From Hexactinellida sp. DTS-2022 (lineage: Eukaryota > Porifera > Hexactinellida), in NCBI GenBank assembly GCA_028753945.1, contig JAPNXP010000002.1, forward strand, positions 14,453,624 to 14,517,623: DNA of 64,000 nt, given 5' to 3'. The notes below the pieces were generated by a model. It was not told the origin of the DNA and searched no databases. It saw only the letters and a list, made by a program, of their open reading frames with translations. Shown in pieces: positions 5,494-44,964 of the stretch. A program made the position numbers and the translations under genes. The first letter of the stretch is position 1. Each line of letters starts with the position of its first letter.

Positions 5494-7668
<2,175 letters not shown>

Positions 7669-24858: not shown

Positions 24859-24898
24859 AACAATATTTTAAGTCAGAATTTAATATATAAGAAAGGAG

Positions 24899-25042
24899 TT
24901 TACTTATACAGCGATCATCGGCGTTTGTATAAAAAAACCTGGCTACTTTCTACCGATTGTTTTTTTATGTTTATAAAAACACCATCGGTAGAAAGTAGCC
25001 AGGTTTTTTAATACAAATGCCGATGATCGCTGTATAAGTAAA
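24899..25042. repeat. Near-perfect hairpin with arms of about 58 bases (hairpin 2)
   Basis: The left arm starts TTTACTTATACAGCGATCAT and runs through CCTGGCTACTTTCTACCGAT. The right arm is almost its exact reverse complement, ending at 25042. The loop is about 25 bases of T-rich sequence. It lies 40 bases from hairpin 1 and is unrelated to it. It could be a foldback transposon or a transcribed hairpin precursor. Confidence 0.88.
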
Positions 25043-25963: not shown

Positions 25964-26759
25964 TTACTTGATTATTTGGAATTCCAACCTTTAGCATTAT
26001 ACTCCACTGGTCGTTAGATCTGAGTTATTTTGGATGGGTGTATTAGAAATTAACAAAGGTATCGGAAATCAAACTATCTATTTAGCATAGCATTCTCATT
26101 TCTGTAAGGATTGGGTCAACAAGTATTTAAATAATACTCACGTATATCATAACTTGCAAGGTAAACTTACCTGAAATTCTTAGCTCTCAATAAATTTAAC
26201 TCTTCAGAGAATTCTGTTAAGACCCCAGCCTTGAGAGAATAAATTTATAGAATAGAACCTAGCGCAATAGATTAATTTTATCCTTCCTTATGGGGTGGTC
26301 GATTGTAAATATAGTGTCATTAGTAATTGACAACCTTAGTGTGCATAAAATAAAAATATAACAATCACATACCATCTAACTAAAATTTATTAATCAACTC
26401 TCCTCAAGTGATATTCAAAGGAGGCGACTATTAAGTAGGACCATGTTTAGTCCCCTACTAGGTCCCTATCTCACTCACTAACAGCATATCCTATACAAAC
26501 TAGGTACCTGGTTCATTAAGCAGGATAGAGTCGTGAAGAGATAGAAATGTAGATAATCCTAAATATAAACAATAATAATATACAAAACTAATTATCCTAC
26601 ACAAACATATCTCACATTATGTGTGTACTGCTGCAGAACACTCAATGCAATTCTCCACTCAGCAACAGCAGCTAGTATCACAATACATTTGTTACCGGAG
26701 TTGAGGTCCTTACTATAAATACGTAGGTTATTTTATTGATATAATTATCCAATAAGAAT
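25964..26759. other. Intergenic, 3' side of the HPS6-like gene
   Basis: AT-rich. Probably contains the 3' untranslated region of the HPS6-like gene and the promoter of the STI1 protein. No further exon seen. Confidence 0.5.
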
Positions 26760-29700
26760 TTACAAGTGCCTCCACCTGTTATACAACACTTTGTAGTATG
26801 CGATAGCTTTCTGTGTTGTGAGCTGCTGGATTCCACTGAGCAGGTAGGATAGGTCGGGCAGGCTGTCCAGAGCTCGCTGGTAGGTCTGTGTGTAGCTGCT
26901 CTTGCGAACGAACGCTGGTTCTTTGTAGCAGTCTACGTCTAACAGGTGTTGACACCTGGTGATGAATGGAATCTACGGGCAAATGTTATACGATGTTTAA
27001 TTATTAGAAAGGAATTGGAATTGAATGATATTCTTACTCACTAGATACTCAGGATCATACTGGAATGTCAGACGACACACTGTCTCGAATATTGATGGCA
27101 AAAACTCTCTCGCATCCTGTATAAATAAGTTAGAAATTATTTCTAAAATTATTACTCAATAGAGTTTACTCGCTTAATTGGGTCACTTTGACCCAACCGG
27201 AGCTGGTATACTGTATTTAATTACGGTAACCTATTCTCAAATGAATAAACGTGCAGTATAGACAACAAGCTATAAAAATTATTGATAAGTGCAGATTGTT
27301 ATTTCTTAATAATTATCAGAAATAAGGATTTCAGAATACAGTTTAAGGTTTTTGGACGCTCATCGTGAGAGTAAGTACTTTGGTTTTCTTGTCGAACTGT
27401 GCGCCGACTTGTCCAGGCACCACGTAATACGGGAGACACAGATCTAGCTGGTATCTGTTGGGACGCGCAGTGAGCAGCACCCTGTCCTCCCCGACACTCA
27501 GCTCCAGGTGCTTGCTGCTCCTCAGCAGAGGCAGCTTGGTCTCCAGCACAATGTAAGCAGGAGGGCCGTCCGGCGGGTCCTTAGTTAGTGTGTACTCCGG
27601 CGTAGGAGCTGGTGCTGCCTGAGAGGGGACTTCAGTTATTAACGGAGAATACGAGTTCGATTCAATGGCGTCGCTCTCCTCCATCTCTATCCTGGGTTTG
27701 CTCTCAGTCCTGACCCTGTGCTCCGTGGGGGTGCCCATGTACTTTACGTTCTGCATGCGTCGCATCTCTCTGTTCAGCTCCAGTCCGTACTTGGCCTCCA
27801 GCCCCTCCACCGTCAGCAGCAGCAGGAACTCCATCATGAGCGGCCGGCGCTGCGACTCCGTGTACAGACAGCTGTGCAACATGACGTCATATACGACACA
27901 CGCGTTGTTGGACCTGTCCAGCTCTGTGCGCGGCTCCCCCAGAGACAGGGGCACGCGGAACTGAGAGGAGTCCTGCGTGCGGATAATCTCTAGAAGCTCC
28001 TCGTCAGTGACGTCACGCGGCTTCTTCATCGCGTCACTGGTGCAGACATTTATGAATATCTTCTCTTTCGACTTGATAGATTTTGTTTTCAGACAGAAAG
28101 CGGGTGTGGGTAGAATGCTGATGGTAGGAATAGCAGAATCATTGCTGGCAGATATGGCATCCTCAGGCGATGGAGTCGTAATCAGCTGAGAAAGGAGGTT
28201 ATCTGGTATGCTCTCCATTCTCAGATAGCTAGGCTAACGGTATACCAGATATGTTATGAGTTGTGTACAGTACATCCGTATTAACTGGAGTTCATTGTAG
28301 TACAATGCTTTGTTGATATTAAGCATTTAGGATGCAAAGCTGAAACATTATGTTTTTTTGACAAATAGTATTATGAACAAATACTAAAGTAATAATATAA
28401 TCTACCTTAATAGCTGTACGAACAGGTTCTACAGAATTGAATAATTTCTTCCAGTTAATCTTCTCATTCGGATTGTGTTTGTAATCTACAAATAACATTG
28501 TACGTACAACTACCAACCACTACACCAGTGCAGCTCTATAGTTACCTTGAGAAAAGAAGTGTTTTACAGATTGCAGCACTTCCTCCGGATTCACGAGACA
28601 GAGATACTCGAATATATAAGAATAGCCTAGAAGTACACATCTGTATAAAGGTATAGTATTAATGCAGTAGAACTCGGTTATAACATACAATCTCGAGTAT
28701 ACATGAATGGAAATAAGTACGTATTATCCGAGAGTACATACTAAAAAGTTTGAATTACTTACTGCTTTATAAACTTGTTTATAAAAAATTAGTACGAACC
28801 AAGACGAAATACGTACGTACTATCCCAGGTACGTTAAACCGAGTTTTAAAACTGTAATATTATAACACAGTACCTGAGCATATTGGTTGCACAGCAGACT
28901 CTGTAACAACAGAGTTAATATAGCTAATAACTTTATACTGAATACTAGGAGTGCTATTAACAGCTGTTGCCGTGTCTGTACAGGTGAGGACACCAGCCTG
29001 CTGAGTGGTGAGGGAGGAGTATATTGATATGTTCCTGCAGAGCTCTCCTCTGCAGTAGAAAGGCAGCAGGTTGTTCCTGAGGTGCTTAAGATCTCTCAGA
29101 GAGTTCTGGTAGCGAATCAACTCTCTATGCAGAGCTGTGTGGAACTTTGGGAACTAACGAGAAAATAAGCTGTATAACTGTTGCAATATAATTATAAGAA
29201 TATAGTGTAGAGCAACGAATATTTTTAATCGAATTTTTCTATAAATTAATACAATCCAAACGCCACATACTTATATAGAAGGCACAAATTATCTCGACAA
29301 CTGCGAAATTTTCTTTTAGTATCTTAAATATACCAAAATTGTGGATTATTTATAGAAACTTCTCACAATTAAATGCTCTATTTTTGGAATGATCGAATGT
29401 ACTACAAACAATAATAAGTTGGTTGGATATGAGGGTTATAGACTACCTTTGAGAATAAGTTGAGTAATATAGTTGGGTTCTCGATATGATCATGATCCAA
29501 CTGAGTGAACAGAGACTCCAACTCAGCTTTGTGTGCATCCTCAACATAACTCGGTGTCTAACAAACGAACTACAGTTAATTAACTAAATAATTAAGTAAA
29601 TTAACTAACTAACTAACAAACTAACTAACTAACTAACAAACTAACTAAGTAACTGACTAACTAACTAACTAACAAACTAACTAAGTAACTGACTAACTAA

Positions 29701-32700
29701 CTAAAATAAAATAATAATGAGCACTATACTACACTAATTTCCTACTTGTTTAACAATCCAATACGCCGCCTCAAGTGCTGACTTGATCTGCAGAGAGCTA
29801 GAGCCCCAGGCCCGCAAGAGATACGGAGTCTCAACAAGAGCAGACAGCTTCCTGTCCTCAGGCGTACTCGTGTGCAGATTAGATATCTGGTCCCTCAAAG
29901 GCAGATTCTACACAAGACAAAGTATGTTAATATAAACGGGTTTTGTAAAGATGTTTCTAAATTATTAACTACTATAATTCCCTACTTAGCCCATATGATT
30001 GAATCAATTTGTATTATAAAATATAATAAAGTATCGGGCATACAAAAGTGTAGTTAGTTAGGAAGAGATAGGGTTGCTATGGCTACTAAGGGGTTTTAGG
30101 ATTCTCGGGTTGTGCCCCCTCCTGGAAACTGGACTTCCTCCAGAGCATGCGCTGCTTGTCCAGCAGGTCCGACTCCTCTGCTTGCAGTTGTGTGTCGTAG
30201 AACTGATTAGCGAATGCGATGTCGTTAGCCGTGGAGGCGGAGGGGAGGTCGGTCTCAAGCGTCTGTCCCTTGTCGGTCAGCTCAGAGTACTTCCTGTAGA
30301 AGGGAGAGGTCTTGCTGGCGATGGCTTGACTGTACGCGCTGCTGTCCATTTGCTCGTCGTCCGCCGGGTCGTAGAGCTGCTCCTCCAGGGGCTCGGGGCG
30401 CCGGGAGGGCATCACGCTGGATTTGTGAGCTCGGCGGTTCTTGCTGGTGCGGCCCCAGTGCTTCTCGCACTTCCGAATCGAGAAATGCATTATCACCACA
30501 CACAAGGGCACCAGTAGGAATCCGATCAACAGCCCCACCCCCACTGACCCCCACAGGATGTAGAACTTGGTCACGTTTATCTCCTCAAACTCGGTTCTAT
30601 TGCAGCAGTGCGGCCCGAACCCGAGGTCGCAGCACACGACAGCGTCCAGGTCTGCGGGGTCGAACGGACAGAAGCCCCCGTCCGGCACCCCCGGACACCT
30701 CTGGTCGGCGGCAACCAGAGACAGGCTCCAGAGGAAGCAGGCCAGTATCAATAGGGAATCGAAATGCCGCATTACTCAAGCAATATGCTATCATACAGAA
30801 ATAACAACAATAATAGGCTATGCAACAATTGGTTCAATTATAGATAACAAGTTACCGTCACGAAGAGTATTATTACATTTCAAGAAAGTTCTTAGCATCA
30901 CCAGAAGATACCTGGCGATATTATAGTACAAGAGTTGAATACAGACAACTTGTATGACGTATGCTAAACAGCTGATAGCAAATAACTCAGGTGGCCGCCC
31001 CCTGGTTCATGCCTACGTATTTCAACTGCTTCAGCGTATCAGTGAATATCTGTCTGGACGCGTCTAGCATCTCTTTGTACACGCGTGTATCCTCCTTGCG
31101 AGACTGACTCACAGAGGAGAGTCTGTGCTGTAGAGCCGCGTTCTCGTCCTCAGCTATCTCGATGCGCTGCAGAATCACCTCTCTCGACTGGGAGCCAATC
31201 TCCCCTGTCAGAGCGGCAGCTAGTTTCGCGCCATTCTGCCCGACTCTTGACACCTCCTTCTCCAGGAGGACGCTGGAGTGTCTCAGCTGTCTCAGCTGTG
31301 CCTCCTGAGAGCTCCCGGCCGCCACCGCCTCAGTCAGTCTCTCCTGCATCAGACCGACTAGCTCCCGAAGCTTGTCTCTCTCCACACTCACACTCTGCAG
31401 CATTCCATTCACCCCAGCGGTATCCAGGAGCTCGCTGCCGGTCAGCTGTCCCCTGACCACAGCCTGTCTCCCTCTGCACTTCCCCGCCGCCTCCTCGCAA
31501 GCCGGGAGCACGGAGGGGAGCGTCACGTGGTTGTGTCTGCTAGCCAGCTCCTGCGTGAGATTCTCTATCTGCACACACTTCTTATGCAGCTCCTGCTTAA
31601 GCCCGTCTATGGCAGTCTGGTACTTAGCGACCATGGACGCGGGAGGCTCAGTCGGCTTGGGAACAGATTTCTCGCGAGCCTTGCTCTCCGCCAGTTCCTT
31701 TCTCAGCTGTTTCGCCTCCTGCGAGAGAGTCTGGTTCCTGGCATGCACAGCTGTGCACTTGTTCTTTAGCTCGGTCTGTGACCGCTTCATCTCCTCCAGA
31801 TCGCTCTGTGTCTTCTCAGCGGAGTCCTTCCTGCTGGCGTCCATCCGCCTGAGCAGCTCCCTCTGTCTGTCGCTCTGGCTGGACACGCCCCCTCTGCCCG
31901 AGTCGGCAGTGGCGAGCGACTCGTGTCCAGCCGCCGGGCTCAGCTCCCGCTCGGGGCCCAGCTGAGCCTGGGCGCGCAGCTCGCTCACTTTCTTCTTGAG
32001 CAGCTTTATCTGCTGCGCGCGGCCCTTCCACGCGGCTTCCGAGTTTATTATCTGAGAGAGCGAGTACCTGTCAGCCTCCGGGCCCAGCTCCTGCGTGAGG
32101 GCCTTCTGTGTCAGCCGCAGCTCCTGTCGTAGTGACTGGTTTGCGTTCTTGCCCTCCGTAAGCCGGGCCTTCAGCTCTGTCGCTTCCTCTCTGGCTAGCT
32201 CCAGTCTCCTCTGGCCAGAGGGAGACACGTCCCGCGGAGAGGGGGGCTCGTTCTCCAGCTGTTCTCTCAGCTGACGCGCCTCCCCCTCCCTCAGCCTAAC
32301 CAGCTCCTGCAGAGACAGCTGACTGCCCTCCAGTCGCTTGGCTCTGCTCTGCTCCGCATACAGCTCTGCCTGCAGTTCCCGCGTCCGCTTGCTGAGCTCC
32401 ACAATTCGGCCCGCCACGTTGCCGCTGCCGCCGCCCGCCCCTATCGCCTGGAGCGCCTCTTGGGACCTCTTAACCTCGCGGTCCTTCTCACCTAGCCCCC
32501 TCTTGAGCTCGCTGTTCTCGGTCTGCAGCTTAGCCACCAGCTCCTGGAAGTACCGTAGCTCCCTATCGCTAGCGCCCGTACTCTCTGTGTCGGCCTCGCT
32601 GCACTGGACAGAGGAGTAGGTCTGTAGCATCAGGTTATCGTCAGGGGGCTCTGTGGAGGTGTGAGGTTTCGCGGCCTGCAGTCGGTTCTGCTGGATAGCC

Positions 32701-35700
32701 TTAAGTCGCTCTCTGAGACGGAGAGTGTGGCTGGCTTGGTCCGACTCGGGGGAAGCTGACATGCTATTAGCTAAGTGCTAGGGTTGCTTATGGGTATTGT
32801 AAATACGTATATGTCGTGTATATAGGGTGTTAATAAGAATAGCGTATAATATAACAGAGTCCAGTAATAGGATCAAATAAAGTGAAGCAGAGATCATGTA
32901 GCGACTTAAGTTGTATACAGCTAATGTTAAACACACTTTCTAAAAGTGGCCATTAGAATACAGTTAAGAAACTTTGTACAAATAAAAACTTCGTCTCTTC
33001 TTAGAAAAGACTAACTGCATTATTTAACTACCAATATCTATGCATAACATATGAATGGACCCCTACCTCTAATAACAAGATACTGTTGCTAGTGTGGACT
33101 CCTATCTTCCTGTATTCGTATAAAGAGTAGGAATACAGACGGGCCTCTCCTTCAAGCTCCTCGCAAGACTGGACACACACTCCCTGTTTGGGTTCATATA
33201 CCCTAAGGAATACTTTGTAATATTAACCATGTGTTTTAGCTAAAAATGAATTAACACATACAGTAGAACCTCGTTAGTACAAACAAGGTTAAAGGAACAC
33301 TATTTCAGTCCCCTTCAGAGCTTTTTCAACACAAATGATATTGGTTAATACGAATTCCGGATAAGGCGAACGCATTTTGCCGGACCCTTGGTGTTCTACT
33401 AACGAGGCTCTACTGCATATCGCCAATAGAATAAGTATTGAATAAGTATTACTAATGTGGAGGATGCTTGTAAAGGAACATACATTTATTTAAACGTGAA
33501 TTCTTACAGGGAGATAGAGCAGATCGTTTAACTGATTCTTATAAATCTATCGGATTAATTAAAGCACTAGCTGTATTACCTAATATGAGCTCCTGTCAAT
33601 ATAATAATCAGCTGTTGGTATGACGTCATCTGTAGCGACACGCCAGACACAAGCTGAGGCATATCGAGAGAACACAACTTATCTCTAGAGAGGAGTTCTC
33701 TCTCGTCAATCGACAGATTCCATAAATCGTAGTTATCCTCCAGAATATAGAATGAGTTATTAGAACTGTCCTTAGGTGTTGCAGCGAGTACAGAAGTAGC
33801 AGCAGTATCCTAGTTATAACTTGATTATATCGCGTAACAATGGGAGATAACAACAAACCTCTATTCCTATAGAGGATCGGAGGATCATGAAGTTCTTTAA
33901 TGCGAGGACATTCTTCCAAGGCTGAAGGTTTGAATCTGACAGTTTAGACCAATCAATTATCTAAAATGAGAAAATATAACAGCATCCCGTGTTATATCTA
34001 ATTTCCCATTTCGACGTTGATAGATTAATCGGAAATTGAAATTTCATCCATACTATTCAGCCGTCCCATTATTCGTGGGATACTCTATCTTATTAACTTA
34101 TTACAATCGTAACTTTTAATAAATTTAAGGTGAAAAAATATATACTAGTAATTATTTTTATGAAAATTAATAAATTTAAGCAGGTATCTAAATAATTATG
34201 ATATAAAATGTCCCGTGAAATCTCATGCCTCCATCGTTATTGTTTGTTGGCAATAATGCATAACTACAAGAACTAGCACTTGGAATGCAATCACTCTAAT
34301 AACGACCTAACGACCTGAACAACTTTGTTCACAGGAGTTGTAGCAAAAATACTATAATAAATAGAAATACACCGAAAGTGGATTTATCAGTTACAGAATT
34401 ACGCAAGAGTTCATATAACCATCTGGCTGAGAAAATGAGTTCATTACGTCCTCCCCGAAATATATATACACGTCAAGATTCCATGAGGCCTCTAATGTTG
34501 TCAACGAAAAGCCATTAAAGCAATTAGTCAATTAGGTAGAACGAGTATTGACACATAAATTTTAGCATTAATCAGTTAAAAACATAGATGTTCGCACAGT
34601 AACAACATTTATTGGATTCACGTAACACAATTATAATCTGTCGATAATCTACGTATAAATCAACCTCTCGTTAAACCCAGTAGAATCCTTAATAAGTTAG
34701 CAAATATCATAGATTGATGGTTAGAAAGATAATCTTGAGTGAGGAAAATTAATTTTGACAAAATTAAATAGTATTGCAGAATTTCGCAACGAATTTAGAA
34801 TAGCTAACAAAAGATGAATAACGATTAAATTAACATTATAAAGTGAGAGATTTCATAATCCTTACCTTGAAATGTTTCTTTGTCAGAGAATATAGAAATA
34901 TTAGTCCAGAGAAAAACTTTGCTCTACAAAAAATAAAATAAAATTAATGTAACTTTAAGAAGTCAAGAAATATAAGTGTAACAAATCTGTAGAACCTCGC
35001 TACACGGTGTATACGAGATTCTGCTTAATACGAACAAGATTTCAGTCCCCTTCAAAGCCTTTTCAATACAAATGATATGGTTAATACGAATTCCGGATAA
35101 GGCGAACACATATTTTTGACGGTCCCTATGGTGTTCATACTAACGAGATTACACTGTATGTACAATAATATAAAGTAATTAATGGGTCCGAGTAACAAGT
35201 TAAGAGGACTCACTTCGGCACCAGCACTGCTACAGAGCCGCTAACAGAGATGCTAACTTGCGGACAGCTGTCACACAGAACCTGTGAGCTGCCGATCTCT
35301 CCCTGCTGAGTAGCGGGTATATTCAGGCTACAGAACACATAACTGTAGCGGCCTTCCTTCTGTCTCCCCTCGGTCCATAGCAAGGTATTGTGAGCATAGC
35401 AAACACACAGGTTGGTAACCAGGTTATCAGGGCTAGATAGAATATTGGTACTAGTCAGGAGATGAGGTACTCCCTCCCTCACACGGAGCACAACTAGACT
35501 ACCGTCTTCTTGCACCTAGAAAGTAACAAAATAAACACCTCTTATAAGTTATAACTCATAATAATTTGCTTTCTTCACCCTTTTAACAGAAATTACTGAG
35601 TATTAAAAAGTCTTGAAGGGGCCACAAACAGTGTACGTAAGTATATCTGGAAATACGTATTAATTAACCCATAGCATTATAGATGCTATGATTAACCATA

Positions 35701-38700
35701 TTTCCACTAACGAGAGTCAACTGTATTCAATAAGGCACATCACATCTACACCGTATACTGTTCGAATAGAGCTAATAAAACAAGAATAATTTACAATACA
35801 ACTTACACAAATGCAGGATTTACAAACATACGAAATATACAAATAGTAATTAATCTTCCTTAACGAAGAATAGAAAATAAATGTGACACAACATTATTTC
35901 TTGGCCTCCTGCGGTTTCTTTACCTCTTTATTGTTGTTATTATTCCTGTGATGCACTACAGTCTCAAATATAACTTTGGACGCCTTATGGTCTATGAGGT
36001 CATACTCAGTCTTCGCATCCCCTGTTGAGCTGTTGGTCTGTACAGGAGTCCCGTCGTGCTTTAGAGTGACGTAATTAAGTTTCTTCTTGCGAGCAGACTC
36101 TGTCTCTTTAACGCTGAGAGACTGTAGGTAGGCCGCGGCCTGGTTGGCTTGTATAACGAAGTCCTGGTTAATGTAGTCGGGGGTGTTGAATACGGGCTGG
36201 GACTGGATTGAGTTTAGGCTGCTACGCTTCGAGTCCCTGCTGCCGAGGCTGCTTACGTCATCAGCCAGAGACCCAGGATGTGACATCACTTCATACAGCT
36301 CATCCGTGGAGTCCGACAGCTGGCTAGCCTGCAGGCCCGTCAGGAAGTCCCGCACCCTGGGGGACGCCTGCGCGGACATGTTAAGCAGCTCCTGTTTGGC
36401 AGAGACTCCCTGTAGGTAGGAGAAGGGAGTGGTAGCGACGGGACTGTCGGTAGGCTCCATCTTCATGTAGGAGTCCTCTGGGCCCGGGTCCGAATACTGG
36501 GCGTCCGGCCAGGTGTTGGCACGCAGCCTGCACACAACAGGACCGGATGCAGGAATGTGTAAGTGGTCGTAGATATCTGAGCAGCTGGGCGTCTCCAGGG
36601 ACTGGGAGAAGTCCACCTTCCGATTGCTGGAGATTAGCTTGTAGAGGTTGTACTGGGTGTCCGAGAAGAGGGCCTCCCTGGGTATGTTGGAGGGGAGCGT
36701 CTGGTAGAGAGAGGGCGCGAGGGGGCGGTTGGAGGGGACTTGGTATATCGGACTCTTCGGGGGGAGGGGCGTGTCCAGGATGACGTCAGCAAGAGAGTTC
36801 CCGTTGTAAAACGTGGAGTTACCCACTCTGAAATACTTGCTGTTATTAGAGCACCTGGACTTTCTCTTTCCGAATCGAAACCTCTTCCTATCCAGAGTGG
36901 CAGACTTATAGTCCGGATTAGACGCGTCGCTCTCGACAGACAGACGGGACTCCTGTGTGAGGACGGAGGACCAGGAGGCGTAGGAGCTCCGGTCTGTGAA
37001 CGCAGAGGTGCGTGCGTCTCGCGGACACCCGGTCTCCGAGAAGAATACCCCGGTGGGCTCCTGGCTCAGACGGGGGCCGTCAGTGAGTGAGTGGTGCCTC
37101 CTGACGTCATCGTTAAGGTAGAGAGGCTCCTGCAGCCCCGCGAGAGAGACGGGGAGAGAGTTGTGAGAGGATTTGGCAGTGTTGTTGTTGTTGTTGTTTG
37201 ACTTCATTAACACCCCGCTGCAGTACTGTTTCCAGGTCAGATTCCGCTCCATGCGCTTGTTGCCGGTGCTGCCCATTATGCTGGATAGACTCGAGTATAT
37301 GCACTTGGCTAGCACCACGGACTCCACGTACATCCAGAGGTACCCCTCCCCCGTCACGGACTTCCGGCCCGCCTCCACGAAGATCAGCTGCTGCCAGTTG
37401 CCGCAGCGACGAAGGAACTGGATGTCAAACGCCAGCAGCTGAGAGCCCGTCTGCATGTCCAGGAATATAATGACGTTCTTCTTCAGAGCGAGGATAACAT
37501 TCGGCTGCTCGAAGTACGAGCTCTCCCCGAGCTCTCGCTTTATAATGCAGACCGGACAGGCGTCCTCAAACGCCTCCCGCTCCACTAGACTCAGGTCGAA
37601 GGGACTCCTGCAGTCGTACAGCGGAATTAGACTGATGGGGATCTTCAGCTCAGGGAGCCGCACGAGAAATTCCAAATCACTCACCCAGTCGTCAAAGTTC
37701 TCTTTTGGGTCCAATTCGAAGTATATGTCATGGAGCTTGTCCCTGTCTTTGATAAGTTCTAGCTTTATGTGGAACGGGACCAGGGACGGAGACTTGAGAG
37801 GGGAGTTGGTTTCGATTTTGTGTACACTAGCTATGGAGCGCATGGGGATAACTTTGTTTGGAGTGTTTTTCTTTCTCGCCTGCTTCTCATCATCGTAATA
37901 CTGAATGTGAGCCAGTATCGAGTTACTAGTCGCACAATGCAAACGTAGATATCTACGCTTCATGTTTCTGCCGACAATTTTGCCTACTTTCACATAACCT
38001 TCGCGAATAATCGTCTTTTCCATTTTCAAATGTAAAATATTCAATTGTAATATTTTATAGAATAGCACTTAGGCATCGCAATAAATAGAAGTGCGAATTA
38101 CTGTAAGAATTAGGCTAATAGCTACCATAGCTACCGAAAGAATTCACCAGAGACCATTAAATCCTGTTATAAGACTTCTTCATTCTTCTGCAATAAAATA
38201 TAGCCAATAATATAAATCAGGTAGCAAAATGAGAGATAGTTATGACAGAGTGAAACCATTTCGGTAATAATAAGCCATGTAGTTGCATTCCGATTCTCTA
38301 TCCAAGCTGTCAAGGAGTAATCACACGGTTTGATGGGTCATAGAATCCATGAAATTAGTTAGGTTAAATGACAACTTTGTTTCGGATACAGACAATTTGA
38401 CACAATAAAGCCATTTCAATTTCATGTATCGAAATGTCGGTATGTATTACTTTGTTTTATACCATGTTGTATGTCAATGACAATACACAATTCATAATCT
38501 ACGTTTGGTGGACAAAAATGCCTTCCTCACAAGGTTGCATATGGACTCTGGAGGGTCTAATTTTCCTGGAATTTTGCGTTACGTAACGGGCCTTATATAC
38601 TGAATTACTTCGATATAAGCAAGGTTCGTTATAAGCGGACTGAAATAAACTACTTGATCCGTCTGGAGAATATAAGTACAAATACGGTGACCTCAGTATA

Positions 38701-41700
38701 GTTTAATACAGTGATTCCCAAAAAATGGGATCCAAAGGGTCCACGGAAAGCTGTAGGGGGTCAGTAATACATCTTACAAGATGTATTACGGTCAATGGGA
38801 GGGGGTCCACATAATGTCTCATGTTTACTATAGGGGGTCCACCGTCCACGGTTGAAAAAGGTTGGGAATCGCTGGTCTAATAAAACCCATCAATATATAT
38901 ACTCATTACGAATGTCCACTTTGTAAGTTTGTATGTAACTTGAGAATAAATACGTTGTTCTCACAATATCATAACTGAAGACAGAATTATCAATGCATTT
39001 GCACTAGGGATGAAAATGTTGAGATAATACTACTCTTGACTAGGTATATCGCAGTGGCTATTGAAGTAAAAAACCCAAATTTATATTTTCAAATTCATTT
39101 TCTCATAATTTTTGAAAATCAGTGTAAGCTGCTAAGTAGATTATTTTCAATTCATCAGTTTATTTTACTTTATTGCAAATAATGAACTAAATATTTATAA
39201 AGCTACAGCACTCCGGCTATTTATACCATGTCTGGCTCTTGGCCGCGTCCCTGGCAGACGCTCTCCTCCGCCTCGCACAACCTGCAGGAGGAACTGAGTA
39301 GGGAGGTCAGCACCATGCGCAAGTTCGCGAGCAGTTTCGTGAAGAAGCGATCTGCGCCCGAGACCCCAACGCACCAGCAGGAAGAAACATCGGAAGCGGC
39401 GGCCATGTACACGCCGAGAGTTGGATACGAAGTGGTGGCTTGGAATGTAGCGAATCTATCCGAGATACGCCGCAGAGCTGTGACGGCAGCAGCAGAGGGA
39501 GACAGGATCGACCGCGATATCTCCAAGCTGAGTAAGCGAGCGAAGAAAACGTGTAAAGTCTACAGCGGGCTTCACAAGGAGCTGGAAGCAGTGGCCGATA
39601 CCGTCCTGTCGGTCGAGAAGATACACACCGACCTGTCCGACCTAGCTGACCAAGTTAACGCTATCAACTTCAGGTTGGCAGAAATGGAGCTACTAAACTC
39701 ACAGGTGCAGGTGTCCCGCGCCAAGATGGAAGAGTTCCGTCGCTTCTCTGCCTACAAACACAGCCGGCAGGAAGAGCTGAAGAAGATGGACAGCAAGCTG
39801 ACTGCAGTGAGACAGGCGCAGCGAGGGAATAACGAGCGCCAGCGACAAGAGAGCCTGGTCATGAAGCAGCGGTTCCTGGACGAATCTTTCCAGCAGCAAA
39901 TGAAGCAGTACAAGGAGTACGGCACTCTCAGACCAGGGATAGTCGACCGGAAGTTCCAAGGCTCCTCTGAGTACGACAAGCCGCTGGGGGAGGTAGAGAT
40001 AGAGGGGGACCTCAACAGGGAGCGGGACCTGACTAACTTCCTATCGGACGCGCCCTCTCTCGACCAGCCTGAGACTAATACGGACAAGGAGACAGCCGCC
40101 CCTCCACAGGACTCTCCTATCACGAATGAGCGACTAATGCAGTCTCTGTTGCAGCAGAAAATGGACGGACAGAGGATAGGAGACGTACAGGACGAGTCGC
40201 CGCCCTCCTCGGGACTAGACAAGGAGAACACTCGCGAGGATGGCGCTAGTTAATATTAATAATTGTATATAATATGGATGAGTACCATGGATGAATAATA
40301 TATTATTTCATTATTGGATGGAAGGTTATGAATCAAATTCTATTAAGTTTTTAAAGCCACCGGGCTAGGTATTCGTATATAATCTGTGTTCAATAATTTC
40401 ACTGGATAATATTGCTAAAATCCATGGGTATTTATTTGATGAGATTATTGGTAGTGTTCACTTAGTTAATGGTAACATTGTTTCACTTCGTCACGAAACG
40501 TATCTGAAGATGCGGGGCGGAATCATTAATTCATTATTTGATGACGACACAGTATTATTATAATTTGCTTTGCAAATATTCTAATTTGTGAGGCTTATCA
40601 TGATTTCTGCTTCTATGTAAAAAAAGCATGCTGCAAAAAAGCATGCTGTAAAAAGTAGTATTTGTGAATAAATACTGGGGAATCAGTTTTTGTACAAGTA
40701 AATCTAAATACAGTGGAAGCCGCTTAATCGGGAGACGGTTAATCGGGAAATTCGGTTATTACGGACGAGGCTTTGGAAACTAATTCGTATCAAATAGTAT
40801 AAAGTATATCGGTTAATCGGGAGAACCGGATAAACGGGACTAAATTCCTACTCCCGAGGCGTCCCGATTAAGCGGCTTCCACTGTACTTGCAAACTTAGG
40901 TCGTACCAAACCGTGACCCAACTTAGAAGTATTCTGAGGGAAAAAGTCAAAGAGGCGCAATGTAAGCTCCAAAATGAAAATACGTACATAGTCATATTAT
41001 AATTACAGTACGGTAGATGTCGGATATAAGCACACCGGTTATAAGAACATATCGGATATAAGAACACTATGTTGGAAAATGGTTACCATAAACCCTATAT
41101 AATTTATATCGGTTATAAGAACATTAAGTCCAGTTACCGACGATGTGCTTATAACCGGCATCCACTGTATTAAGTTAAGTAGTACACTGCTCAAATAATA
41201 ATACAGCTCTCGAGCTCTGTTTAATTAATACATGTATTACGTGTAAATCTTATTCACACAATTAATTGAGCAGAAAGATAAATGCACAATTATATATTGA
41301 CGAACCTCCGACCTCGCTATAGCTGTATTAATTAGACACAATTGCGCGTTTATTCCTTTACACTCCAGAAAGAGACAAACAACCATCCAGTTTTAACTTT
41401 ATAATATATTTTAGGTAGAGAGGGATTCCAAAATATTTCCGCAAAATGGGGGCCAAGGAATGCTCCCAAAGGATGGCCTGCAAACCAGGTACCATTCGGA
41501 GAACCGACCAGGTCCGAAGAGGGGAACTGAAATTTGTCATGACAGAAATGGATAATTGTAAGTTGATTAAATACTATCCTAGATATATTCGAACAGTTTT
41601 AATGTTCATTAAAAGAGCATACAATTTAAATTTTAAAGTACAGTAAATCCAACGCTCGTTGGGACAGGAAATTTGTGTCGGATTAAGACAAATTCCGGTT

Positions 41701-44700
41701 TATAGTGGGTCGGATTACGCGGGTTCGAATGTACCTAAAGAGCAAGTTATTATCTATTTGTTTATTCTGTAGATGAGAGCAGAAGGATATCACTTATCAT
41801 CGAAGGAATAAATTAATGAATAAAGATGAGACTACTGAAATAACTGTTAATGTATTATTTTTATTATTTACATTATTATTATTGTTGTTAATTAAGTAAT
41901 TAATAATTCGATCAAATCGAAAAGTCACACATTTTTTACAGCTTGCTTTTTTGCAGAATGCTTTTTTTGCAGCATGCTGTGATTAAAACTAGGGCTGAAA
42001 CGAATATTCGAAATGTAACGAACGAATATTTTTCTAAACGAACGAATATTCGAATATTCGTTCGTTTGGATGACTAAGCATTAAATCAATTTCTAGAGAC
42101 AAAATACAGTGGAAAATTGGTTTTTGATAATGTTACAATGATATAATTTTAGTTACAAAGTGTATTATGCACGAGTTAACAAATAATCAGATACTTTAAG
42201 TGGGAATTTATTTTTACGATATCTCTCAGCGATACAAAAGACTTTTTGTTGTCCAAAATTAGTCAACGAATCTCCGTTTCAATCTAGTATTCGTCCAAAC
42301 GAATATTCGTTTCGTAACGAATATTCGTTTGCAAACGAACGAATATTCGTTTAATCATTTCGAACGAATATTCAAATATTCGGTATATTCGTTTCAGCCC
42401 TAATTAAAACCATTAATTTAGGGAAGTGCGGTGATTATTCTATTAATAAGTTATATAAATACACTAATTAGAAATGTGTAGTGAGTTTAGTTATTCTGTC
42501 CGCAGAGTGCCACTAGTTTGTAACTATACCATACTAGCTATTATCAGTGAGATTACCCGAGTGTCCCTGTCTAAGCTATATAAGCTGGGGCCCGTCCTCA
42601 ACTTCCTATTCAATGATAATATATTTCGATGCTCTCTTTCAACCATTTTGCGCAAAATGTGTATAACCATTTGAATGTATAATACAATAATCACAATTAT
42701 CAGACTTGTAACATCAGAGGGATAATTATACATCATACATACGACTGAATTAACTAGTGCAGTTAACTGACCAGCAGTGCTGTGTCTCTGTGTGCGGCTG
42801 TGTGTATCAGTGGGGAGGCGGACTGGAGAGGGAGAGTAGCCGTCTCTAGGCCAACCCCGGGCCGGGACCTGCTCAGCAGCAACACGCGACTCTTCTCTCT
42901 AAACACACAGCATTGCAATGATATTATTATTATGTTATTTAGAGCTGAAACGAATATTCGAAATGGAACGAACGAATATTAGAATATTCGTTCGTTTTGA
43001 TGACTAAGCTTTAAAATCAAATTCAAGACTCAAAATACAGTGGAAAATAGCTTTTTGTTAATGTTACAATATTCGTTTGAAAACGAACAGATATTCATTC
43101 AATCATTTCGAATATTCGGTATATTCGTTTCAGCCCTAGTTTATTCAACCACATATAAATCCCAATATCTAATTGTTTGAACTTTGAAGTATAAGCGATG
43201 GTTGCAAGTCCTAGTGCTTGGAGGAACGAATAGCCTGCAAACAATTGATACAATCGGATAACTGTAATGGAACAAAATGCATGAAATTGCTGAGTAGACA
43301 GGATACATGCACAATATTCAAAAATTATATTTATTCTAGACAGAGTCATGTGTCCTGTAACGAATTGTCTGTATAGGGCTGTTGTGTGGTATTTTGAGAC
43401 GCCTATATGATACACTCTATACACCATGGATGTGCTATTACAAATTAGACTGTGGTATTTTGAGACGTGGTATTCTGAGGCGCAACTATATAAGGTAAAT
43501 TATATTTCTCTCCTTGTCTACAACTATCACAACACAATCAATCAATCAATCAAACAAACTAATCAAACCAAACCAAATAATCAATCATTTCTATTCTGAT
43601 TTTCAAATGAATTCAGAAGAGTATCTTGTATAGTTGCGCCTCAGAATACCACGTCTCAAAATACCACAGTCTAAAATTTTGTAATAGCACATCCATGGTG
43701 TATAGAGTGTATCATATAGGCGTCTCAAAATACCACAGCGTCTCAAAATACCACACAACAGGGCAGTCGACAGTTATTGTATAACTTGTAAGGTTTCATA
43801 ACCTGTTGATGAGTTGAGAAATTGTAGATAATTGTTTTGACTCCAACTGAGATAAAAGGAACGCTTACGTCAAGTTACTATAAATATTCACAGTTCATTA
43901 TAATGAGTAAGTAGTGTTTATTAGGAACTACAATATCAAAGTTTTCTCAACAACTTGTTTATTTATTAATTTCTGATACTCAAATGAAACAGTCTACAAG
44001 CGGTTTTCTTCCAAGCATAAATATTCACGCGCTTATCATAAATTTTGTTTGAGCTCGCTGACACATGCCTAAATTATCCATTTTTGTATTAATTCTATGG
44101 GAATATCTCTTTATTTACGCGCCTGGATGAAACCTTAGTATTGACACTCTATATTATGTGCAATTAGGATCTAACAGAGACGAGAATGGCCTACAGACGA
44201 GTGCTAAGCCTATCCAGACTCCTATCGCTACCCAAGCTCCGCGCATCAGTGCCGCCTCTCCAGCAGCCACCTCAGTTCTCTGTGTCCCTGCCCCTGCCCC
44301 GCCCCCTGACAGCTCGCTATCTGTCTTCGGACACCAGCGGACCGGACCGACACGCCAGCAAAGAGGACAGCGAAATAAAGACGCGCATCCGGTACCTGAT
44401 CAACTGCGACAAGGTAGTCGTGTTCATGAAGGGCAGGCCGGACACCCCGTTGTGCGGCTTCAGCAAGAAGGTGGTCCAGATCCTGCACGTCCATGGTGTT
44501 CAGTTCTCAAGCTTCGACGTGCTCCAAGACGCCTCGCTTAGACAGGGCATAAAGGACTTCACCGGATGGCCCACCATCCCGCAGGTGTTCTTCAGTGGCG
44601 AGCTGGTCGGGGGCGTGGACATTATATCGAGCATGCACCAGAAGGAGGAACTCCCCGCAGAGCTCGACAAGATCGGTATCAAATCCAGATTGGCTCCACT

Positions 44701-44964
44701 CAAGTAACAATGTCCTTCTATTGATATGCACCCATTTCAATTGTTAATTTTATACGGATTACTGTTAGGCTAGTTATGTATAGTAATAATAATCAATCGG
44801 ATTGCGTCTTACCTGGAGTTGGAAGTGAGAGCGACTGCTAGAAAGTCGGAGGCCCCCGTGACGCAGCTGATGCCGCAGGTGCCGTCAGCTGTGAGGGCTG
44901 TCCGGACAGACTTAGCATTCAGTTCCCAGTGTGTGGACTCCTGTAGTCGGGTTAGGTTAAACAT
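26760..44964 (-). CDS. HPS6: HPS6-like BLOC-2 subunit, 15 exons, host of six nested genes
   Basis: Spliced model on the minus strand with GT-AG introns and matching phases: 44964-44813, 42898-42772, 42601-42557, 35515-35214, 34923-34866, 33960-33859, 33809-33580, 33202-33067, 29907-29746, 29557-29447, 29153-28874, 28626-28546, 28485-28406, 27116-27042, 26972-26760. The total is 2,154 bases, 717 residues plus stop; human HPS6 is 775. Similarity I recognise: LLWTEGRQ, the SCP...VLVPKAKFFSGLIFLYSL stretch across exons 4-5, and LHRELIRYQNSLRDLKHLR in exon 11, all in HPS6 order (beta-propeller-like N-half, helical C-half). BLOC-2 moves cargo to lysosome-related organelles. The model is strong except the 45-base exon 3, whose acceptor is weak. 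The name rests on remembered similarity and needs a search. Confidence 0.68.
27343..28218 (-). CDS. PIH1D1: PIH1D1-like R2TP subunit, nested in HPS6-like intron 13
   Basis: 291 residues, intronless. The PIH-N domain (about 45-170) has KIFINVC, RDVTDEELLEI, FRVPLSLGEPRTELD and LTVEGLEAKYGLELN, each close to the PIH1D1 consensus. A C-terminal CS-like domain (about 215-290) follows, with LETKLPLLRSSKHLELSV and DLCLPYYV. PIH1D1 links clients with acidic phospho-motifs to Hsp90 through RPAP3 and RUVBL1/2, for assembly of PIKKs, snoRNPs and RNA polymerase II; PIH proteins also assist axonemal dynein assembly. It lies entirely inside intron 13 of the HPS6-like gene on the same strand, so it needs its own promoter and must be removed with the host intron. 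Confidence 0.85.
   Translation of the reverse strand: MESIPDNLLSQLITTPSPEDAISASNDSAIPTISILPTPAFCLKTKSIKSKEKIFINVCTSDAMKKPRDVTDEELLEIIRTQDSSQFRVPLSLGEPRTELDRSNNACVVYDVMLHSCLYTESQRRPLMMEFLLLLTVEGLEAKYGLELNREMRRMQNVKYMGTPTEHRVRTESKPRIEMEESDAIESNSYSPLITEVPSQAAPAPTPEYTLTKDPPDGPPAYIVLETKLPLLRSSKHLELSVGEDRVLLTARPNRYQLDLCLPYYVVPGQVGAQFDKKTKVLTLTMSVQKP
28664..28857. mobile_element. Tigger/pogo-like MITE in HPS6-like intron 11
   Basis: Left end CAGTAGAACTCGGTTATAAC and right end ACCGAGTTTTAAAACTG form an inverted repeat. The interior has GTACGTACTA-type motifs shared with 9883-10270. Non-coding. Confidence 0.6.
29580..29705. repeat. (CTAA)n microsatellite in HPS6-like intron 9
   Basis: About 125 bases of CTAA repeats broken by CAAA, GTAA and GACT variants, arranged in a partly regular higher-order pattern. 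No other feature. Confidence 0.9.
30086..30772 (-). CDS. Shisa-like single-pass membrane protein, nested in HPS6-like intron 8
   Basis: 228 residues. Signal peptide (about 1-22), then a short ectodomain with six cysteines (26, 35, 47, 48, 56, 57) in which VCC...HCC gives paired cysteines like those of Shisa-type proteins. N-glycosylation sites are at Asn58 and Asn66, and one transmembrane helix spans about 70-97. The 130-residue cytoplasmic tail is charged. Shisa relatives modulate receptor trafficking; whether this one does is unknown. The resemblance rests on layout and cysteine spacing only. It lies inside HPS6-like intron 8, same strand, about 210 bases downstream of the CCDC13-like gene. 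Confidence 0.6.
   Translation of the reverse strand: MRHFDSLLILACFLWSLSLVAADQRCPGVPDGGFCPFDPADLDAVVCCDLGFGPHCCNRTEFEEINVTKFYILWGSVGVGLLIGFLLVPLCVVIMHFSIRKCEKHWGRTSKNRRAHKSSVMPSRRPEPLEEQLYDPADDEQMDSSAYSQAIASKTSPFYRKYSELTDKGQTLETDLPSASTANDIAFANQFYDTQLQAEESDLLDKQRMLWRKSSFQEGAQPENPKTP
30987..32762 (-). CDS. CCDC13: CCDC13-like coiled-coil protein, nested in HPS6-like intron 8
   Basis: 591 residues, almost entirely coiled coil. Three segments match the CCDC13 signature: AGRIVELSKRTRELQAEL (about 118-135), LRQELRLTQKALTQELG and WKGRAQQIKLLKKKVSEL (about 200-260). The end of the protein, with ENAALQHRL...YKEMLDASRQIFTDTLKQ, matches the CCDC13 C-terminus. The human protein is about 715 residues, so this one is shorter in the middle. 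CCDC13 is a centriolar-satellite protein needed for ciliogenesis and genome stability. A Gly-rich insert (GAGGGSG) lies near residue 112. It is intronless and carried within intron 8 of the HPS6-like gene on the same strand. Confidence 0.8.
   Translation of the reverse strand: MSASPESDQASHTLRLRERLKAIQQNRLQAAKPHTSTEPPDDNLMLQTYSSVQCSEADTESTGASDRELRYFQELVAKLQTENSELKRGLGEKDREVKRSQEALQAIGAGGGSGNVAGRIVELSKRTRELQAELYAEQSRAKRLEGSQLSLQELVRLREGEARQLREQLENEPPSPRDVSPSGQRRLELAREEATELKARLTEGKNANQSLRQELRLTQKALTQELGPEADRYSLSQIINSEAAWKGRAQQIKLLKKKVSELRAQAQLGPERELSPAAGHESLATADSGRGGVSSQSDRQRELLRRMDASRKDSAEKTQSDLEEMKRSQTELKNKCTAVHARNQTLSQEAKQLRKELAESKAREKSVPKPTEPPASMVAKYQTAIDGLKQELHKKCVQIENLTQELASRHNHVTLPSVLPACEEAAGKCRGRQAVVRGQLTGSELLDTAGVNGMLQSVSVERDKLRELVGLMQERLTEAVAAGSSQEAQLRQLRHSSVLLEKEVSRVGQNGAKLAAALTGEIGSQSREVILQRIEIAEDENAALQHRLSSVSQSRKEDTRVYKEMLDASRQIFTDTLKQLKYVGMNQGAAT
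33261..33415. mobile_element. Tigger-like MITE, family D copy 1 (HPS6-like intron 7)
   Basis: 155 bases with ends CAGTAGAACCTCGTTAGTAC and GTTCTACTAACGAGGCTCTACTG. The interior GGTTAATACGAATTCCGGAT is shared nearly unchanged with 34988-35158. Confidence 0.8.
34988..35158. mobile_element. Tigger-like MITE, family D copy 2 (HPS6-like intron 4)
   Basis: Same family as 33261-33415, same orientation: TGTAGAACCTCGCTAC at the left, ACTAACGAGATTACACTG at the right, and the shared interior TTTCAGTCCCCTTCAAAGCC. It ends about 55 bases 3' of exon 4 of the host gene. Confidence 0.8.
35894..38023 (-). CDS. Insulin-receptor-substrate-like adaptor (PH + PTB), nested in HPS6-like intron 3
   Basis: 709 residues from the chosen ATG. 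A longer frame starts 45 bases upstream, but the PH domain begins immediately after the inner Met, as in IRS proteins. PH (about 5-122) and PTB (about 135-255) are followed by a disordered tail with docking tyrosines: YMKM at Tyr519 and YEVM at Tyr577 (p85/PI3K-type YxxM), YINQ at Tyr617 (Grb2-type YxN) and LNYVTL at Tyr651 near the C-terminus (SHP2-type). This set favours IRS over DOK. It would connect insulin/IGF receptor kinases to PI3K and Ras at the plasma membrane. Intronless, same strand as its host; poly-Asn stretches occur in the tail. Confidence 0.82.
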   Translation of the reverse strand: MEKTIIREGYVKVGKIVGRNMKRRYLRLHCATSNSILAHIQYYDDEKQARKKNTPNKVIPMRSIASVHKIETNSPLKSPSLVPFHIKLELIKDRDKLHDIYFELDPKENFDDWVSDLEFLVRLPELKIPISLIPLYDCRSPFDLSLVEREAFEDACPVCIIKRELGESSYFEQPNVILALKKNVIIFLDMQTGSQLLAFDIQFLRRCGNWQQLIFVEAGRKSVTGEGYLWMYVESVVLAKCIYSSLSSIMGSTGNKRMERNLTWKQYCSGVLMKSNNNNNNTAKSSHNSLPVSLAGLQEPLYLNDDVRRHHSLTDGPRLSQEPTGVFFSETGCPRDARTSAFTDRSSYASWSSVLTQESRLSVESDASNPDYKSATLDRKRFRFGKRKSRCSNNSKYFRVGNSTFYNGNSLADVILDTPLPPKSPIYQVPSNRPLAPSLYQTLPSNIPREALFSDTQYNLYKLISSNRKVDFSQSLETPSCSDIYDHLHIPASGPVVCRLRANTWPDAQYSDPGPEDSYMKMEPTDSPVATTPFSYLQGVSAKQELLNMSAQASPRVRDFLTGLQASQLSDSTDELYEVMSHPGSLADDVSSLGSRDSKRSSLNSIQSQPVFNTPDYINQDFVIQANQAAAYLQSLSVKETESARKKKLNYVTLKHDGTPVQTNSSTGDAKTEYDLIDHKASKVIFETVVHHRNNNNNKEVKKPQEAKK
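38709..38874. mobile_element. hAT-like MITE, family B copy 2
   Basis: 166 bases with ends CAGTGATTCCCAA and GGTTGGGAATCGCTG. Target duplication GTTTAATA (38701-38708) / GTCTAATA (38875-38882), one mismatch. Shares the AGGGGGTCCAC interior with 8509-8671. Lies in HPS6-like intron 3 between the IRS-like and dysbindin-like genes. Confidence 0.88.
39228..40253 (+). CDS. DTNBP1: Dysbindin-like BLOC-1 subunit, nested antisense in HPS6-like intron 3
   Basis: 341 residues (human dysbindin is 351). The central coiled coil (about 85-225) carries the family layout: YEVVAWNVANLSEIRRRA corresponds to the RYE-W-LHRRA region, and FLDESFQQQMKQYKEYG to the FEEAFQQDMEQY signature. The N-terminus is short and the C-terminal 110 residues are acidic and disordered, as in dysbindin. 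BLOC-1 sorts cargo from early endosomes to lysosome-related organelles, upstream of BLOC-2. The gene is unspliced and on the strand opposite to the HPS6-like host, inside its largest intron. The identification rests on motif order; a generic coiled-coil protein is the alternative. Confidence 0.75.
   Translation: MSGSWPRPWQTLSSASHNLQEELSREVSTMRKFASSFVKKRSAPETPTHQQEETSEAAAMYTPRVGYEVVAWNVANLSEIRRRAVTAAAEGDRIDRDISKLSKRAKKTCKVYSGLHKELEAVADTVLSVEKIHTDLSDLADQVNAINFRLAEMELLNSQVQVSRAKMEEFRRFSAYKHSRQEELKKMDSKLTAVRQAQRGNNERQRQESLVMKQRFLDESFQQQMKQYKEYGTLRPGIVDRKFQGSSEYDKPLGEVEIEGDLNRERDLTNFLSDAPSLDQPETNTDKETAAPPQDSPITNERLMQSLLQQKMDGQRIGDVQDESPPSSGLDKENTREDGAS
40711..40884. mobile_element. TA-flanked MITE, family C copy 2
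   Basis: 174 bases with 23-base almost perfect ends (CAGTGGAAGCCGCTTAATCG and complement) and TA on both sides. The interior repeats GGTTAATCGGGA. Tc1/mariner/pogo type; HPS6-like intron 3. Confidence 0.9.
41011..41167. mobile_element. TA-flanked MITE, family E copy 1 (ATATAAGAACA repeats)
   Basis: 157 bases with ends CGGTAGATGTCGGATATAAG and CTTATAACCGGCATCCACTG and TA duplication. The interior repeats CGG(T/A)TATAAGAACA. A second copy at 57331-57485 abuts the start of the receptor gene. Confidence 0.85.
41990..42402. mobile_element. hAT-like MITE, CGAATATTCG family copy 2, perfect target duplication
   Basis: 413 bases with ends TAGGGCTGAAACG and CGTTTCAGCCCTA and an identical 8-base duplication ATTAAAAC (41982-41989 and 42403-42410). 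Both subterminal regions are dense in CGAATATTCG palindromes. It lies in intron 3 of the HPS6-like gene, 155 bases from the 45-base exon 3. Confidence 0.93.
42940..43138. mobile_element. hAT-like MITE, CGAATATTCG family copy 3 (internally deleted)
   Basis: About 199 bases with ends TAGAGCTGAAACG and CGTTTCAGCCCTA. It is a deletion derivative of the 413-base form, sharing GATGACTAAGC and AAAATACAGTGGAAAAT. The target duplication is imperfect. It begins about 40 bases upstream of exon 2 of the HPS6-like gene. Confidence 0.82.
43379..43761. repeat. Large palindromic element with GGTATTTTGAGACG units
   Basis: Arms of about 115 bases: the left, 43379-43495, starts CTGTTGTGTGGTATTTTGAG; the right, 43626-43761, is its near-exact reverse complement and holds one extra GTCTCAAAATACCACA unit. 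The loop contains a CAAT-rich microsatellite. The motif GGTATTTTGAGACG and its variants occur several times. Probably a foldback DNA transposon; HPS6-like intron 1. Confidence 0.88.
44186..44707 (+). CDS. GLRX5: Mitochondrial monothiol glutaredoxin (GLRX5-like), nested antisense in HPS6-like intron 1
   Basis: 173 residues. The first 50 or so are Arg/Ser/Leu-rich without acidic residues, a typical mitochondrial targeting peptide. The glutaredoxin domain has VVVFMKG, the monothiol active site CGFS (90-93), WPTIPQVF (128-135) and GGVD (142-145), all needed to bind glutathione and a shared [2Fe-2S] cluster. It should pass iron-sulfur clusters from the scaffold ISCU to downstream targets. The start was chosen because it gives the targeting sequence in frame with the domain. 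It is intronless, and the first exon of the HPS6-like gene lies about 100 bases beyond its stop, on the opposite strand. Confidence 0.93.
   Translation: MAYRRVLSLSRLLSLPKLRASVPPLQQPPQFSVSLPLPRPLTARYLSSDTSGPDRHASKEDSEIKTRIRYLINCDKVVVFMKGRPDTPLCGFSKKVVQILHVHGVQFSSFDVLQDASLRQGIKDFTGWPTIPQVFFSGELVGGVDIISSMHQKEELPAELDKIGIKSRLAPLK

What the first reader, a model, noticed from the sequence alone, without database searches (positions are those of the whole stretch)
26760..44964. One spliced gene hosts six intronless genes inside its introns
Minus-strand exons with matching phases assemble into a 717-residue HPS6-like protein. Intron 1 contains GLRX5-like (+), intron 3 dysbindin-like (+) and IRS-like (-), intron 8 the CCDC13-like (-) and Shisa-like (-) genes, intron 13 PIH1D1-like (-). 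Nested genes are known in animals, but six full-length conserved genes in one 18-kb host is exceptional, and four are on the host strand, where their own poly(A) signals could truncate the host transcript.
Basis: partly seen in the sequence, partly recalled or inferred. Interest (0 to 1): 0.88.

Follow-up and report, generated by a model that had tools for sequence, protein, structure and literature searches.

The report
Sponge gene with six nested genes
In what looks like a glass-sponge genome, one split gene (HPS6-like) carries six uninterrupted genes inside its introns; such nesting is already reported as frequent in a glass sponge, so this is a rich example of a known arrangement.

Summary
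The core observation holds, with corrections. Its exon 3 (42631-42557) is doubtful. Its stop near 26760 reads through a splice donor: four further exons run to 26074, giving 18 exons and 762 aa. The host halves separately match HPS6_N (E 0.019) and HPS6_C (E 0.066), both below Pfam cut-off. HPS6_C needs the added exons: 0 of 8 shuffled tails gave it. Pfam ties the introns holding CCDC13-like, Shisa-like and PIH1 genes to the host. The introns holding GLRX5, dysbindin and IRS are tied only by phase, splice sites, coding score and expected N-terminal length. All six nested genes are single open frames; for IRS alone an intron-bearing paralogue was found. The organism is most likely a glass sponge (dysbindin 72% identical to Oopsacas minuta). 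A published glass-sponge genome (PMC10282587) lists 12,409 single-exon transcripts and 2,432 nested genes beside 19,578 genes. Six in this host fits the local density (5.3 expected, P 0.45). Ordinary in kind; whether host and nested transcripts coexist needs RNA data.

The parts
44813..44964 (-). host exon 1, ATG start, 50 codons
   Evidence: open frame, coding score 6.8 (4 of 2,329 control segments as high), GT donor, phase 2
44186..44707 (+). nested gene 1, glutaredoxin (GLRX5-like), 173 aa, in host intron 1
   Evidence: PF00462 E 5e-20; other hits 42-43% identical
42772..42898 (-). host exon 2
   Evidence: coding score 14.1, highest of the host exons, 0 of 2,329 control segments as high; phase match
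   Evidence: score -6.3 in frame; lowers HPS6_N match
39228..40253 (+). nested gene 2, dysbindin-like, 341 aa, in host intron 2
   Evidence: 72% to Oopsacas minuta dysbindin-A-like; no second match in genome
35894..38023 (-). nested gene 3, PH + IRS (PTB) domain protein, 709 aa, in host intron 2
   Evidence: PF02174 E 1.2e-8; PH below cut-off; intron-bearing paralogue on contig C2
35214..35515 (-). host exon 3
   Evidence: bulk of the HPS6_N match
34866..34923 (-). host exon 4
   Evidence: phase, GT-AG
33859..33960 (-). host exon 5
   Evidence: phase, GT-AG
33580..33770 (-). host exon 6
   Evidence: phase, GT-AG, score 3.8
33067..33202 (-). host exon 7
   Evidence: phase, GT-AG, score 2.7
30987..32762 (-). 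nested gene 4, coiled-coil (CCDC13-like by recall), 591 aa, in host intron 7
   Evidence: coding score 250; no second match in genome
30086..30772 (-). nested gene 5, Shisa-like (by recall), 228 aa, in host intron 7
   Evidence: coding score 61.7; no second match in genome
29746..29907 (-). host exon 8
   Evidence: score 7.2, phase
29447..29557 (-). host exon 9
   Evidence: phase, GT-AG
28874..29153 (-). host exon 10
   Evidence: score 5.7, phase
28546..28626 (-). host exon 11
   Evidence: phase, GT-AG
28406..28485 (-). host exon 12
   Evidence: start of the HPS6_C match
27343..28218 (-). nested gene 6, PIH1 + PIH1_CS protein (PIH1D1-like), 291 aa, in host intron 12
   Evidence: PF08190 E 1e-34; only other hit 29% identical
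27042..27116 (-). host exon 13
   Evidence: inside the HPS6_C match
   Evidence: score 10.0; inside the HPS6_C match
   Evidence: inside the HPS6_C match, which needs this tail
   Evidence: end of the HPS6_C match
   Evidence: phase, GT-AG
   Evidence: phase, AG acceptor, stop

Best explanation
A minus-strand HPS6-like gene (BLOC-2 subunit; 18 exons, 762 aa, 44964 to 26074) in a probable hexactinellid sponge genome holds six separate single-exon genes in introns 1, 2, 7 and 12. Shown: the reading frames, usable splice sites and phases, weak but ordered family matches, and no intron-bearing copy found for five of the nested genes. Inferred: the six arose as cDNA-derived (retroposed) copies that landed in introns, the intron-bearing parents being lost for five and represented by a paralogue for IRS. 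Each is transcribed from its own promoter, while host introns are spliced out whole around them. Same-strand nesting is tolerated perhaps because three of four same-strand nested genes lack a canonical poly(A) hexamer nearby. This follows a habit reported for glass sponges, rather than being a special device of this locus.
For: Gene model: 17 of 17 introns are GT-AG with matching phase and no internal stop (sites chosen by eye). Host exons 1 and 2 score 6.8 and 14.1 for coding; of 2,329 open AG-GT segments of 100-160 nt in unassigned sequence 4 and 0 score as high. HPS6_N is the only Pfam hit of the N half and HPS6_C the best hit of the C half, in the right order; 0 of 4 whole-half shuffles gave either (4 of the 6 made were submitted), and 0 of 8 shuffled tails gave HPS6_C. 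That match spans intron 12, which holds PIH1. IRS paralogue with four introns (sites chosen by eye) within the aligned stretch, 121 of 272 columns identical. For five of six nested genes a six-frame search found no intron-bearing copy. Seven of seven dysbindin hits are proteins of 307 to 332 aa, 61-90% identical, the one with a species name being Oopsacas minuta. Published glass-sponge nesting and proposed retrotransposition (PMC10282587).
Against: HPS6_N and HPS6_C scores are under Pfam's cut-off (16.1 and 12.6 bits against 27), and the full-length search does not list HPS6_C. Two protein searches found no HPS6 relative (0 of 7,993 scored, with the 787-aa version; 0 of 132, residues 80-200 of the 762-aa version), and a PDB sequence search found none. 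The join of exons 1-2 to exon 3 has no family support: shuffled N-termini score 14.6-18.2 bits against 18.1 for the real one (1 of 8 as high), and exons 3-7 alone give 14.9. Seven of 18 kept exons have slightly negative coding scores. No RNA evidence. No target-site duplications or poly(A) remnants were sought.
Confidence: 0.75

Rival explanations
1. Exons 1-2 are not part of the HPS6-like gene; the host starts downstream of IRS and holds only three nested genes (CCDC13-like, Shisa-like, PIH1). GLRX5, dysbindin and IRS are then upstream neighbours.
For: The Pfam evidence proper covers exons 3-16 only, and the exon 2 join is not better than shuffled N-termini.
Against: The frame upstream of exon 3 meets a stop at once and that upstream of exon 2 has no ATG before a stop, so exon 3 needs upstream exons. 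HPS6_N position 100 falls at the start of exon 3, so about 99 upstream residues are expected, and exons 1-2 give 93. Their coding scores are matched by 4 and 0 of 2,329 control segments.
Confidence: 0.15
2. The nested genes lost their introns in place and host exons were later dispersed around them by rearrangement, rather than landing as retrocopies.
For: For five of six no parental copy was found.
Against: IRS has an intron-bearing paralogue elsewhere. Breaking a host at four introns without damage is less simple than insertion into introns (inference).
Confidence: 0.12
3. Host and same-strand neighbours form an operon-like unit resolved by spliced-leader trans-splicing.
For: A trans-spliced leader is reported in Aphrocallistes vastus (PMC10282587). 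The next gene starts 110 bp below the host stop with no canonical poly(A) hexamer within 400 nt of that stop.
Against: Only 4% of long reads there carried predicted leaders. No leader or acceptor motif was tested here.
Confidence: 0.08

Closest known systems
Nested genes of glass sponges (Aphrocallistes vastus, PMC10282587; abstract, passages and section 6 seen)
   Same: Compact genome rich in single-exon genes, 2,432 nested genes; glassin is a single-exon gene nested in another gene in two species; retrotransposition suggested as a source of non-syntenic single-exon genes.
   Different: Here six nested genes share one host; the passages seen give no count per host and name neither HPS6 nor these six guests.
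Nested intronic genes of the ctenophore Hormiphora californensis (PMC8527503; passages seen)
   Same: 2,357 nested genes in 1,654 hosts, an example of four genes in one host, many parallel with the host.
   Different: That example includes two doubly nested genes; here all six lie directly in the host and are single-exon.
Nested genes of mammals and Drosophila (PMC8467205 part 1 of 4 seen; PMC3192792 passages; PMC13309782 abstract)
   Same: Internal genes typically short and intronless, external genes long with many introns; an active nested gene can promote intronic polyadenylation of its host.
   Different: Most pairs there are stated to lie on opposite strands; here 4 of 6 are on the host strand.

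Membership tests
HPS6 (BLOC-2 subunit) | match to PF15702 (HPS6_N) above cut-off | tested here: inconclusive
   only Pfam hit of the full host, E 0.0051, 16.1 bits against cut-off 27, so below it
HPS6 (BLOC-2 subunit) | match to PF20468 (HPS6_C), C-terminal to HPS6_N | tested here: inconclusive
   best hit of the C half, E 0.066, 12.6 bits against 27, in correct order; 0 of 8 shuffled tails; not listed in the full-length search
HPS6 (BLOC-2 subunit) | assembly with HPS3 and HPS5 (recalled) | not testable with these tools
   no protein interaction data
Nested intronic gene | whole gene within one intron of another gene | tested here: met
   six frames inside introns 1, 2, 7, 12 of the model; family-level bridging for introns 7 and 12 only
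Nested intronic gene | host transcript spliced across the nested gene | not testable with these tools
   no RNA data
Retrogene | no introns, with an intron-bearing parent or paralogue | tested here: inconclusive
   IRS: yes. GLRX5, dysbindin, CCDC13-like, Shisa-like, PIH1: no intron-bearing copy found
Retrogene | poly(A) tract and target-site duplication | not tested
   expected to have decayed (inference)
Dysbindin | similarity to annotated dysbindins | tested here: met
   72% to Dysbindin-A-like [Oopsacas minuta]; no Pfam dysbindin hit

The most novel reading that the evidence does not exclude
The nest is an old, conserved expression unit of glass sponges: same-strand guests are shielded from truncating the host by avoiding canonical poly(A) signals, and a BLOC-1 gene (dysbindin, HPS7 in humans by recall) sits inside a BLOC-2 gene (HPS6), linking two parts of one organelle pathway in a single locus.
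Probability: 0.08. Interest if true: 0.6.

Novelty: new member of a known kind. Interest (0 to 1): 0.3.

Why it matters
It may show how a host gene can escape annotation when single-exon genes fill its introns: two word-based searches of a 5.8-billion-protein collection found no relative of the host. It gives a clear test locus for how an animal splices across several genes on the same strand, and for whether nests persist across glass sponges.

Tried and rejected
Organism: I first took it for Xenoturbella bocki from genome size and 18 sequences (PMC11521371, passages and section 6; PMC10951248, one passage; PMC9911081, passages). The dysbindin search pointed to glass sponges instead, and I dropped that idea.

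My working label PEX19 for the gene at 25187-25963 was wrong: Pfam gives only an STI1/HOP domain above cut-off. The label cytochrome P450 for 3366-4832 is recall and was not tested.

I first read the improved HPS6_N score as proof of the exon 2 to exon 3 join; the control showed that random N-termini do nearly as well, so I withdrew that claim.

PF15702 by six-frame search of the own genome found nothing and rang in 0 of 14 control genomes, so it is uninformative. PDB sequence search of the host: 0 matches. Protein searches of the host: none. Poly(A) hexamers in host introns: 25 sense, 36 antisense, P 0.20; nested genes 1 of 6 against 7 of 11 others, P 0.13: no significant avoidance. Structure prediction was not tried, because a spliced protein is not read letter for letter from the window. 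A look for other spliced hosts in the window (357 unassigned fragments of 35 aa or more) showed 11 with a positive score, all at 45.5-47.6 kb in the aminotransferase gene; this does not exclude weakly coding exons, since 7 of 18 host exons also score below zero.

Full report
OBSERVATION. The window lies on contig C11 of a 112.4-Mb genome in 18 contigs. Glutaredoxin (PF00462, E 5e-20), IRS/PTB (PF02174, E 1.2e-8; PH at 22.9 bits, just under its cut-off of 25.1) and PIH1 (PF08190, E 1e-34) are matched by Pfam. The dysbindin-like protein is supported by a 72% match to a protein named Dysbindin-A-like of Oopsacas minuta. Five Markov-resampled copies of the window gave 0 long high-scoring frames, against 18 in the real window, two of which are exons of a spliced class-III aminotransferase (PF00202 for the downstream one).

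HOST GENE. Minus-strand exons join by GT-AG with matching phase into 18 exons and 762 aa, 44964 to 26074. I placed the sites by eye, so the fit of phases is not by itself proof. With them the C half matches HPS6_C (PF20468, E 0.066, residues 223-378 of that half). Without them it does not, and with shuffled tails it does not in 8 of 8. Without it the N-half match to HPS6_N rises from 14.2 to 18.1 bits. I drop it with moderate confidence.

HOW FAR THE HOST IS PROVEN. HPS6_N falls mainly in exon 3 and HPS6_C in exons 12-16. The two belong to one known family, so introns 7 (CCDC13-like, Shisa-like) and 12 (PIH1) are bridged, and the HPS6_C alignment itself crosses intron 12. Whole-half shuffles gave neither family in 4 of 4 submitted (six were made). 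The scores are below Pfam's cut-offs, and the full-length search lists HPS6_N only (E 0.0051). Introns 1 and 2 (GLRX5; dysbindin and IRS) have no such bridge. Shuffled exon 1-2 sequences in front of exon 3 gave 14.6-18.2 bits against 18.1 for the real ones (1 of 8 as high). What supports exons 1-2: coding scores of 6.8 and 14.1, reached by 4 and 0 of 2,329 open AG-GT segments of 100-160 nt in unassigned sequence (the top 8 listed all lie in the open frame 48298-49500, which may itself be coding); phase and splice sites; no in-frame ATG just upstream of exons 2 or 3; and an N-terminal length of 93 where the profile wants about 99.

ORGANISM. Seven of seven dysbindin hits (2,486 candidates) are 61-90% identical, and the only one carrying a species name is from the glass sponge Oopsacas minuta. 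I take the genome to be a hexactinellid; an earlier guess of Xenoturbella was dropped. Two searches for host relatives in the protein collection found none (0 of 7,993, 0 of 132). That fits a host that annotation programs miss, or a fast-changing protein, or the limits of a word-based search.

IS SIX EXCEPTIONAL? In Aphrocallistes vastus the authors report 19,578 genes, 12,409 single-exon transcripts and 2,432 nested genes, a fraction of 12.4% against a typical 5 to 10%; glassin is a nested single-exon gene in two species (PMC10282587, abstract, passages and section 6). Against a simple 'glass sponges have most' reading: their Table 1 lists more nested genes for two other sponges (Amphimedon 3,358, Sycon 5,032) and only 83 for Oopsacas minuta, and they stress that counts depend on annotation method and that about 10% of exonic bases may be normal for animals. 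In the ctenophore Hormiphora one pictured host holds four nested genes (PMC8527503, passages). Of 24 open frames of 150 aa or more in this window I count 18 as single-exon genes, 6 nested and 12 outside; I left out the two aminotransferase exons, an antisense frame (50749-51300) and three unnamed frames (48298, 57487, 61279). The host span predicts 5.3 inside; P of 6 or more is 0.45; counting the three unnamed frames would raise the expectation. At the published A. vastus density 2.6 are expected in the host's introns, P 0.046 for a single host, before allowing for the many hosts in a genome. So the local density of single-exon frames is the striking thing (41 high-scoring frames in 264 kb here, the aminotransferase exons included; 3 in 50 kb from five other contigs, all in one 10-kb stretch), and nesting follows from it.

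ORIGIN. The IRS gene has a paralogue on contig C2 with four introns within the aligned stretch, 121 of 272 columns identical. For the other five no intron-bearing copy was found: dysbindin, Shisa-like and CCDC13-like have no second match at E 0.001, PIH1 and GLRX5 have only distant relatives (29% and 42-43%), themselves in long open frames. The search scores only the best candidates, so a decayed parent could be missed. Retroposition with loss of the parent is the likeliest origin, and retrotransposition was proposed for non-syntenic single-exon genes of A. vastus. In-place intron loss is not excluded.

HOW IT COULD WORK. Each nested gene presumably has its own promoter (inference). Splicing must skip introns up to 7,256 bp. 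At a mammalian locus an active guest gene promotes early polyadenylation of its host (PMC13309782, abstract).

VERDICT. A real cluster of single-exon genes within the span of one corrected host model, in a lineage where nests are documented as frequent. A new member of a known kind.

Noticed in passing
window 43137-42940 and 42401-41991: Two palindromic, MITE-like elements with similar ends flank host exon 2, one in intron 1 and one in intron 2.
   Followed up: partly
window 25187-25963 (-): A single-exon STI1/HOP-domain gene starts 110 bp below the host stop on the same strand, with no canonical poly(A) hexamer within 400 nt of that stop.
   Followed up: partly
L005 859-3130: Three same-strand open frames about 100 bp apart, the middle one with two glutaredoxin-like stretches; operon-like spacing.
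   Followed up: no
L027 1318-1394: The IRS paralogue starts 75 bp after the preceding open frame on the same strand.
   Followed up: no
window 39228-40253 within 26074-44964: Dysbindin (HPS7 in humans, by recall) sits inside HPS6: two genes of the same organelle pathway. Seen after the fact; it may be chance.
   Followed up: no
window 5494-7551 (-): A polyubiquitin gene of nine tandem units in one open frame.
   Followed up: no
window 11075-16894 (-): A 1,939-aa ankyrin-repeat protein, coiled-coil-like in its later part by eye, in a single open frame.
   Followed up: no
window 48298-49500 (+): A 400-aa open frame whose segments gave the highest control scores; not identified.
   Followed up: no
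window 24740-24860 and 24910-25035: Imperfect inverted repeats near the STI1-domain gene, seen by eye.
   Followed up: no
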